From Parasitella parasitica (taxonomy: Eukaryota; Mucoromycota; Mucoromycetes; Mucorales; Mucoraceae), in contig MU619242.1 in assembly GCA_025201805.1 (NCBI GenBank), positions 64,236 to 125,751 of the forward strand: a DNA stretch of 61,516 bases, given 5' to 3'. Below the pieces are notes generated by a model that was not told the origin of the DNA, ran no database searches, and saw nothing but the letters and a program-made list of their open reading frames with translations. A program made the translations under genes and the position numbers. Shown here in pieces: positions 49,999 to 51,439 of this stretch. The stretch's first letter is position 1, and every line of letters begins with the position of its first letter.

Positions 49999-50030
<32 letters not shown>

Positions 50031-50100: not shown

Positions 50101-50119
50101 AGAAATTCCATGAATTTCT
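50101..50119 (+). promoter_or_regulatory. Palindromic GAA/TTC element, possible heat-shock element of AHA1
   Basis: Perfect 8 bp inverted arms (AGAAATTC and GAATTTCT) separated by CAT, 12 nt before the TATA box (TATATAAA, 50131-50138). The GAA/TTC content recalls Hsf1 sites and AHA1 is a known heat-shock gene in yeast. The spacing of the triplets departs from the canonical nGAAnnTTCn, so the call is tentative. Confidence 0.45.
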
Positions 50120-50207: not shown

Positions 50208-51439
50208 ATGTCCAACTGGAAGAACGTAAATAACTGGTGAGAGTTTTTTTTTTTTTTTTTTTTGTTACCGTGGAAACGCAATCTCCTCAAGTGTGGTGAA
50301 AGAAAGCTAACATTTAACATGTAGGCATTGGTAAATCAAGTTTTTCATTGTTCCCCTCCCCGCATCCACAGCATGTGTTGATTTGATTTCTTCTCTTTTT
50401 TTTTCTTCTTCTTCTTCTTTCTAGGGTGAATAAGAATTGTGCCAAGTGGGCTGAAAAATGGTTTGAGGAACAGTTGGTTGGTCTTGAGGCCGAGAAAGAT
50501 GGCAACAAAGCTCGAATCTCCAAAATGGTTGAATGTTCTGGTGATGTTGATTTGAACCAAAGAAAGGGAAAAATTATCACCATTTACGACGTTAGTTTGA
50601 AGCTGAACTGGGAAGGTAATTTGGGTTTGACAAGCATGCGTATGGGTTGGGGCTTACTGAAGGCATGTTTGTATGTAGGCACTCTTGCTGATGGCACGGA
50701 AGTCAAAGGAACGCTCAATATCCCCGAAGTCGCTCATGACACAGATCCCGATGACTATGTGTTTGAGATCTCGATCAACGACGATAACAACGACAAATCA
50801 GCCATTAAGCCTTGTATTCGCAAGTGCATTACACCTCTTTTGACTGAAAAGTTTGGCAGATTCTCTGCTGCCATGATCAAGGAAAACTGTGATGATGTCT
50901 ATATTGAATCTGCAAAGATGGGACAGGCCACGCCTCCTCGTTTATCTAGCCCTGCCGTCGCTCATGCCACCACCTCTGCCTCTGCCACGACTACCAGCAC
51001 ATCCGCTTCTGCAGTCAGCGCAACTCCCAAGAAAGTGAACACTACCAGCTTGGACAAGACAGAGGAATTCCAGACATCAGCACACGAATTGTACGAAACA
51101 TTGACAGACGCCCGTCGTGCTTCTATTTGGACTCGTGGTCATGTTAAATTGACAAATGAAGCTGGATCTACATATGAATTTTTCAACGGTAATGTCACTG
51201 GCAAAATGCTGGAATTAGTCCCTGACAAGAAAATTGTGCAAACCTGGCGTTTGAAATCTTGGCCTGCTGGGCACTACTCAACGGTAACTTTGGAGTTGGA
51301 GGAAGGCAGCAACTTTGTCACGCTCAAAATGTCGCAGACTGACGTCCCTGTGGGTGAAGAAGAGAATGTAGAAAAGAATTGGTCCGGATACTATTGGATG
51401 GCCATCAAGAGCTCTTTCGGATACGGTGCTAATTTCTAA
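50208..51439 (+). CDS. AHA1: Hsp90 co-chaperone Aha1
   Basis: Stimulates the Hsp90 ATPase. Four exons (50208-50236, 50325-50330, 50425-50615, 50679-51439) give 328 aa. Exon 2 is a 6 nt microexon (GCATTG) that completes NVNNWHWVNKNC, the conserved NxNNWHW motif; without it His and Trp are lost but the frame continues. The N-terminal domain (to ~residue 160) includes NQRKGKIITIYD. A Thr/Ser/Ala-rich linker follows (about 170-200). The C-terminal AHSA1 domain has HELYETLTDARRASIWTRG and ends SGYYWMAIKSSFGYGANF. It converges on the unknown minus-strand gene, with 76 nt between stops. Confidence 0.95.

What the first reader, a model, noticed from the sequence alone, without database searches (positions are those of the whole stretch)
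50325..50330. 6 nt microexon in AHA1 encodes the His-Trp of the NxNNWHW motif
Sequence: exon 1 ends TG, then come a GT-AG intron, GCATTG, a second GT-AG intron, and GGTGAAT. Joining all three gives NVNNWHWVNKNC. Skipping the microexon leaves the frame intact but deletes exactly His-Trp. Knowledge: the N-terminal NxNNWHW segment of Aha1 is conserved and tunes Hsp90 ATPase stimulation. Inference: alternative inclusion could act as a built-in switch of Aha1 activity; I have not seen this described.
Basis: partly seen in the sequence, partly recalled or inferred. Interest (0 to 1): 0.75.

Follow-up and report, generated by a model that had tools for sequence, protein, structure and literature searches.

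The report
Conserved 6-base exon in fungal AHA1
A fungal gene for an Hsp90 helper protein encodes two residues of its most conserved motif in an exon only six bases long; the tiny exon is probably old, shared by many related fungi and normally included, so it looks more like an annotation trap than a proven on/off switch.

Summary
Observation confirmed. AHA1 (50208-51439, +) has a 6-nt exon, GCATTG, at 50325-50330 between GT-AG introns of 88 and 94 nt. Joining restores NVNNWHWVNKNC; skipping keeps frame and loses His-Trp. 2 of 20,000 shuffles of the 188-nt stretch offer such an exon. Public Parasitella parasitica protein P0001 is 100% identical over 328 aa to the included form.

The exon is not peculiar to this genome. 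Of 181 related proteins, 10 lack exactly these two residues (Mucorales, Umbelopsidales, Endogonales, Glomeromycota; long and short paralogues) and 19 show an intron end directly before exon 3. Two intron-unaware ORFs fit AG|GCACTG|GTAA between exons 1 and 3; an intron-free ORF identical to one of them over 64 residues of exon 3 contains His-Trp.

Best reading: an old, normally included microexon, made by two phase-2 introns in the two Trp codons of WHW; the ten skip forms are most likely gene-model errors. The proposed switch has no support here, but only two RNA-like sequences from such lineages were informative and no condition could be tested. New member of a known kind.

The parts
50208..50236 (+). 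AHA1 coding exon 1 (MSNWKNVNN + TG)
   Evidence: matches start of P0001
50237..50324 (+). intron 1, 88 nt, phase 2, donor GTGAGA, acceptor TGTAG
50307..50311 (+). branch-point-like CTAAC in intron 1, 14 nt follow its branch A
   Evidence: motif listing only
50325..50330 (+). 6-nt microexon GCATTG: completes Trp10, encodes His11 and the first two bases of Trp12
   Evidence: P0001
50331..50424 (+). intron 2, 94 nt, phase 2, donor GTAAAT, acceptor TCTAG
50387..50422 (+). 36-nt pyrimidine tract at the 3' end of intron 2
   Evidence: read directly
50425..50615 (+). AHA1 exon 3 (begins G|GTG AAT AAG AAT TGT)
50616..50678 (+). intron 3, 63 nt
   Evidence: protein continuity with P0001
50679..51439 (+). 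AHA1 exon 4 to stop TAA

Best explanation
The six bases are a genuine, normally included microexon. Two phase-2 introns sit in the two Trp codons of the WHW tripeptide (TG|G CAY TG|G), leaving GCAYTG as an exon of its own. Shown here: anatomy, frame, improbability by chance, His-Trp in the identical public protein, an intron end directly before exon 3 in many relatives, and a genomic-type / intron-free pair from a relative. Inferred: constitutive inclusion; presence throughout much of Mucoromycota and in short Aha1_N-only paralogues, with traces in Glomeromycota (shared origin or parallel gain is open); the first-Trp intron being the older and the second gained. It works simply by splicing of each short intron in turn, so that the mRNA encodes an intact NxNNWHW motif, whose WHW part is reported to face Hsp90. 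Skip forms in databases are most likely gene-model errors; a real skipped product would be a weakened Aha1.
For: Sequence and joins. Chance 2 of 20,000. P0001 identical over 328 aa with HW. The model of another Parasitella, P0002, appears to read the end of intron 1 into HW and then joins exon 3 (...CRHW|VNKNC). Of 181 proteins returned by three searches: 129 have His-Trp (Tyr-Trp in one, P0123), 10 lack exactly the two residues, 4 have NNCHW/NNCHS, 2 read an apparent intron-1 end into HW, 19 have Arg (as AG|G would give) directly before exon 3 without HW, 17 are truncated or other. P0158 contains exon 1 in another frame, then exactly one placement of AG|GCAYTG|GT, implying introns of 61 and 94 nt; P0167 (Lichtheimia-like) likewise, 59 and 61 nt; shuffled residues allow a placement in 14 of 3000 and 71 of 3000. 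P0006 is identical to P0158 over 64 residues of exon 3, has no intron, and has HW. P0037, intron-free and 86% identical to the Endogone protein P0042, starts VNNWHWVNKNC. Skip forms are scattered on the tree, with HW-bearing neighbours in Umbelopsis, Absidia and Rhizophagus.
Against: No RNA reads for this genome; only two placed RNA-like sequences. DNA of relatives was not seen; their structure is inferred from translated ORFs, and P0180 gave no placement. Some annotation pipelines may have used RNA, so a skip model could be real. P0168 (jgi), whose nearest protein among 37 compared is Paraglomus P0087 at 66%, reads HW contiguous with exon 1 and exon 3, so at least one possibly glomeromycotan gene lacks both introns there. 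Intron 2 has no CTRAY branch point, only TTGAT twice, 43 and 38 nt from its end, and donor GTAAAT lacks G at +5. My de novo splice-site models scored the acceptors of both introns at or near the bottom, but also that of intron 3; they are not usable, so site strength is not established. 'Intron 1 older' rests on one protein, P0159.
Confidence: 0.87

Rival explanations
1. Regulated switch: the microexon is skipped under some condition, giving NVNNWVNKNC-Aha1, which keeps NxNN but loses the Hsp90-facing WHW and so binds Hsp90 more weakly and stimulates its ATPase less.
For: Skipping keeps the frame. Long pyrimidine tract only at the distal acceptor. In human Ahsa1 lacking its first 20 residues, replacing WHW by AAA reduced stimulation, lowered apparent affinity for Hsp90 and lowered the apparent Km for ATP (PMC11316058, passages). 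A condition-dependent fungal microexon exists (Trichoderma Xlr2, PMC11121469, abstract and section 2.4). Ten skip-form models.
Against: P0006 and P0037 include HW. The ten skip forms all carry NCBI source tags and are phylogenetically scattered. Frame-neutrality follows from the intron positions.
Confidence: 0.07
2. The microexon is included but not perfectly; a low, unregulated level of skipping or intron retention occurs as splicing noise. This is compatible with the best explanation.
For: Microexons are said to be spliced less efficiently because both splice sites cannot be occupied at once (PMC8831610, passage); Trichoderma reesei retains an intron beside the Xlr2 microexon in some transcripts (PMC11121469, section 2.4).
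Against: No read data here.
Confidence: 0.45
3. Chance: a single 188-nt intron with no microexon, so the protein truly lacks His-Trp.
For: Ten relatives are annotated that way; the pattern AGGCAYTGGT by itself is not rare in a window of this size.
Against: 2 of 20,000 shuffles; P0001; P0006/P0158 pair; HW in 129 of 181 proteins.
Confidence: 0.02

Closest known systems
Conserved small microexons of plants (PMC8831610; abstract and passages)
   Different: plants, found with RNA-seq; AHA1 was not mentioned in the passages seen; no RNA-seq here
One-nucleotide exon of Fusarium CYP621A (PMC12940212; passages)
   Same: fungal micro-exon inside a conserved motif (PKG) that upsets gene assembly; an intron over twice the median length was taken as a hint
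   Different: 1 nt, so omission breaks the phase; confirmed by SRA reads; P450 gene
Phanerochaete P450 microexons (PMC1184071; passages)
   Same: fungal, shortest exon 6 bp
   Different: P450 genes of a basidiomycete; alternative splicing suggested there
Trichoderma Xlr2 20-nt microexon switch (PMC11121469; abstract and section 2.4)
   Same: fungal microexon missing from gene models, conserved in its genus
   Different: 20 nt, glucose-dependent inclusion seen in RNA-seq; nothing of the kind shown here
Aha1/AHSA1 and Hch1 co-chaperones (PMC6426937, PMC11316058; passages)
   Same: NxNNWHW and RKxK motifs, Aha1_N plus C-terminal domain, no N-terminal 20-residue peptide, as in yeast
   Different: His-Trp comes from a separate 6-nt exon; no passage seen mentions this

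Membership tests
Aha1/AHSA1 co-chaperone | Aha1_N domain (PF09229) and C-terminal AHSA1 domain (PF08327) | tested here: met
   PF09229 E 3e-40; identical protein P0001 carries PF08327 and PF09229; yeast Aha1 chain 6xlb E 3.2e-57 over residues 6-326
Aha1/AHSA1 co-chaperone | NxNNWHW motif | tested here: met
   NVNNWHW, only with the microexon included
Aha1/AHSA1 co-chaperone | RKxK motif | tested here: met
   NQRKGK in the translation, aligned with yeast Aha1 and relatives
Aha1/AHSA1 co-chaperone | stimulates Hsp90 ATPase | not testable with these tools
   needs purified protein
Microexon | internal exon of at most 15-30 nt with canonical splice sites | tested here: met
   6 nt, AG|GCATTG|GT
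Microexon | present in mature mRNA | tested here: inconclusive
   no reads of this genome; intron-free relative P0006 contains HW and matches genomic-type ORF P0158
Conserved microexon | same exon at the same site in related species | tested here: met
   P0158 and P0167 back-inferred AG|GCACTG|GTAA; 10 skip models and 19 exon-3-border reads. Relatives' DNA itself was not seen; P0168 lacks the introns
Regulated microexon switch | condition-dependent inclusion | not testable with these tools
   no RNA-seq available
Regulated microexon switch | skipped transcripts exist | tested here: inconclusive
   none among the two placed RNA-like sequences; ten skip forms are annotated models

The most novel reading that the evidence does not exclude
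Across Mucoromycota, Aha-type genes carry a six-base cassette that toggles Aha1 between a WHW-competent form and a shorter NxNNW form with weakened Hsp90 engagement, so that splicing, for example under heat, tunes the Hsp90 ATPase cycle in fungi that lack the N-terminal autoinhibitory peptide of metazoan Ahsa1.
Probability: 0.07. Interest if true: 0.78.

Novelty: new member of a known kind. Interest (0 to 1): 0.45.

Why it matters
The most conserved motif of a central Hsp90 activator hangs on a six-base exon in a large fungal group, and at least ten public protein models there lack part of its functional core; anyone aligning, expressing or modelling those proteins may use a motif-deficient version. 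The site also gives a clean test of how fungal spliceosomes handle an exon too small for exon definition, and a possible marker of intron gain in Aha-type genes. If skipping were real and regulated it would be a direct splice control of Hsp90 cycling.

Tried and rejected
Splice-site models trained de novo on 261 kb of this genome (window plus 20 stretches of 10 kb) failed: 9 candidate groups (8 confident), 12 and 45 groups (12 and 33 confident), by eye mostly false introns. They put the acceptors of introns 1, 2 and 3 at 0% (strict) or 0-6% (lax); donors of introns 1, 2, 3 at 0, 0, 25%, 100, 25, 0% (strict) and 79, 58, 61% (lax). As the well-supported intron 3 fared no better I draw nothing from them. 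A consensus listing was noisy; the introns that look real to my eye are about 53-78 nt, so a single 188-nt intron would be long, but that is a hand-picked impression.

A scan of viral contigs for AHA1 gave no relative. Searches of the genome for a second paralogue (P0094; P0138) matched only this gene. The region search with a skip-form query listed 26 proteins, all already.

Rejected: another exon supplying His-Trp (none). Left open: whether NNCHW (P0021, P0025, P0131) and NNCHS (P0017) are real or model errors.

Literature, open-licence PMC only: NxNNWHW + Aha1, 11 papers; microexon + Aha1, 1 paper, on Arabidopsis root hairs by its title, not opened; microexon + early-diverging fungi, 0; microexons + Mucor, 5, listing only; wider searches (20 of 51 listed; 15 of 6,178; 25 of 47; 12 of 20; 15 of 238). 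No listed title or abstract start, and no passage I opened, describes this exon.

Full report
WHAT IS THERE. The stretch holds the only Aha1-type gene that a PF09229 search found in this 30.7-Mb genome. Its four coding exons are 50208-50236, 50325-50330, 50425-50615 and 50679-51439, with introns of 88, 94 and 63 nt. The second exon is GCATTG. Joined, the product is MSNWKNVNNWHWVNKNC...; without it, MSNWKNVNNWVNKNC..., same frame. Of the internal GT/AG combinations tried, four keep an open frame and only this one gives His-Trp. In 20,000 dinucleotide shuffles of the 188 nt between exons 1 and 3, with GT and AG fixed at the ends, 2 offered any 3-30 nt exon restoring NNWHWV. The ten-base pattern AGGCAYTGGT alone is not rare: one in the window, 0.32 expected, and 29 of 100 shuffles have at least one.

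THE PUBLIC PROTEIN. P0001, activator of Hsp90 ATPase [Parasitella parasitica] (Mucorales), is identical to the included form over all 328 residues. Its contig is 439,322 bases; contigs C5 and C7 of this genome are 453,783 and 413,772 bases, so it is probably the annotation of this very gene on C6. I could not see whether that model rests on RNA.

RELATIVES. I sorted all 181 proteins returned by the searches (120 of 619 listed; 26, all among those 120; 65, 61 of them new) by what stands at the motif: 129 have His-Trp (Tyr-Trp in P0123); 10 lack exactly these two residues; 4 read NNCHW or NNCHS; 2 read an apparent intron-1 end into HW; 19 have Arg immediately before V/T-N/S-K-N/D-C without HW; 17 are truncated or otherwise altered. 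The 129 include many fungi without sign of the microexon, such as Mortierella relatives and chytrids. The ten skip forms are Mucor bainieri, Apophysomyces, Umbelopsis PMI_123, Absidia glauca, Jimgerdemannia (marked low quality), Glomus cerebriforme, Ambispora leptoticha, and short one-domain paralogues of Radiomyces, Circinella minor and Cunninghamella echinulata; all ten carry NCBI source tags. Umbelopsis and Jimgerdemannia are Mucoromycota, Ambispora is Glomeromycota in the NCBI taxonomy; the other placements are from recall. On a tree of 44 N-domain pieces the skip forms are scattered, and Umbelopsis ramanniana, Absidia repens and Rhizophagus, with HW, sit beside Umbelopsis PMI_123, Absidia glauca and Glomus without it (15 of 41 inner branches are drawn open). 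The simplest cause is gene callers that cannot place a 6-nt exon.

The Arg in the 19 is what AG|G gives when an intron end is read into exon 3. Fifteen of the 19 come from lgn, jgi or ena sources and four (P0029, P0032, P0038, P0040) are NCBI models, which may instead have been joined to a wrong first exon. They include NKNC Aha1 genes, the NKDC paralogue of Mucor and relatives, and Umbelopsis and Lichtheimia types. In these genes HW is not contiguous with exon 3.

TWO GENOMIC READ-THROUGHS AND ONE INTRON-FREE PARTNER. P0158 (source tag lgn, which I take from recall to mean Logan assemblies) contains VQLEERQQL, which is exon 1 (MSNWKNVNN + TG|GT) in another frame, then 54 residues up to exon 3. 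Only one placement of AG|GCAYTG|GT fits them: ATAG|GCACTG|GTAA, giving introns of 61 and 94 nt; shuffled residues allow any placement in 14 of 3000. P0167, like the Lichtheimia ramosa short paralogue P0125 in exons 1 and 3, fits TCAG|GCACTG|GTAA with introns of 59 and 61 nt; shuffles 71 of 3000. P0180 gave no placement. P0006, also lgn, is identical to P0158 over 64 residues of exon 3 and then goes on as exon 4 does in relatives, where P0158 departs, as expected of intron 3; it has MSNWKNVNNWHWVNKNC with no intron. Since lgn ORFs such as P0158 and P0167 read through introns, P0006 is best explained as spliced RNA. The leader parts of P0006 and P0158 look alike but not identical, so they may be sister species or strains.

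Of 22 proteins with lgn, jgi or ena sources only that have HW, I compared each with 37 named ones. Two fall with microexon-bearing lineages: P0006, and P0037 (86% identical to Endogone P0042, intron-free, starts VNNWHWVNKNC). P0072 is Mortierella-like. Most others are nearest to chytrid or Basidiobolus proteins at 40-69%, or cannot be placed (for example P0134, P0164, P0165). P0168 is nearest to Paraglomus P0087 at 66% over 79 residues and has HW contiguous with both sides, with a tail that looks like read-through after exon 3; if it is a glomeromycotan gene, the two introns are not universal there. So the exon is well supported in Mucoromycota, while its traces in Glomus and Ambispora may mean shared origin with losses or parallel gain.

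MECHANISM. Both introns lie in phase 2 of a Trp codon (TG|G), the two Trp codons of WHW; the exon is the interval between two like sites, hence six bases and frame-neutral. P0159, nearest to chytrid proteins, reads what looks like an intron end directly into HWVEKNC, so an intron at the first Trp may exist without the second; on this one case I infer that gain of the second intron made the microexon. In this gene intron 1 has CTAAC near its end and no long pyrimidine tract; intron 2 has a 36-nt pyrimidine tract and only TTGAT as branch-point candidate. Stepwise removal of two short introns suffices; definition across a six-base exon is not expected (inference).

WHAT THE RESIDUES DO. Removing the first 11 residues of yeast Aha1, which hold the motif, lowered maximal ATPase stimulation about 2.8-fold, and the truncated protein no longer rescued Hsc82-S25P yeast; against this, the isolated Aha1 N domain was not impaired, and earlier work with N-terminally tagged protein had seen no effect (PMC6426937, passages). 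In human Ahsa1 without its first 20 residues all motif mutations cut stimulation; changes in WHW, tested as AAA, lowered apparent affinity for Hsp90 and the Km for ATP, changes in NxNN did not; that paper cites structures in which WHW faces Hsp90 and NxNN contacts Aha1 itself, and says fungal Aha1 lacks the 20 residues (PMC11316058, passages). A two-residue deletion was not among the mutants seen. A skipped product should be a weakened Aha1 (inference).

SWITCH OR NOT. Nothing examined shows skipping in RNA, but only two RNA-like sequences are informative and no condition could be tested. I give a regulated switch 7%.

KNOWN KINDS. Conserved, often mis-annotated microexons are established in plants (PMC8831610, passages) and known in fungi: a 1-nt exon in Fusarium CYP621A (PMC12940212, passages), exons down to 6 bp in Phanerochaete P450 genes (PMC1184071, passages) and a glucose-dependent 20-nt exon in Trichoderma (PMC11121469, abstract and section 2.4). 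This is a new member of that kind. The searches listed no report of it.

Noticed in passing
50101-50119: Perfect 8-bp inverted repeat AGAAATTC-CAT-GAATTTCT about 90 bases upstream of the AHA1 start and just upstream of a TATATAA; it resembles GAA/TTC heat-shock-element units (recalled) but with unusual spacing.
   Followed up: no
P0021, P0025, P0131, P0017: Four relatives read NNCHW or NNCHS in place of NNWHW; Trp-to-Cys could come from a change of the first base of the microexon. Real variants or model errors could not be told apart.
   Followed up: partly
P0121-P0131, P0133, P0136, P0137: Several Mucorales have short Aha1_N-only proteins (about 154-175 aa), one named Hch1; on the tree those included fall in more than one place, and three of the short proteins show the skip signature.
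   Followed up: partly
genome G000: A second Aha1 paralogue (NKDC type, P0138) is recorded for a Parasitella elsewhere but gave no match of its own here; P0002, also labelled Parasitella parasitica, is only about 87% identical to this protein, so two species may share the name.
   Followed up: partly
50244-50263 and 50002-50030: Long T runs (20 and 29) just after the intron 1 donor and upstream of the gene.
   Followed up: no
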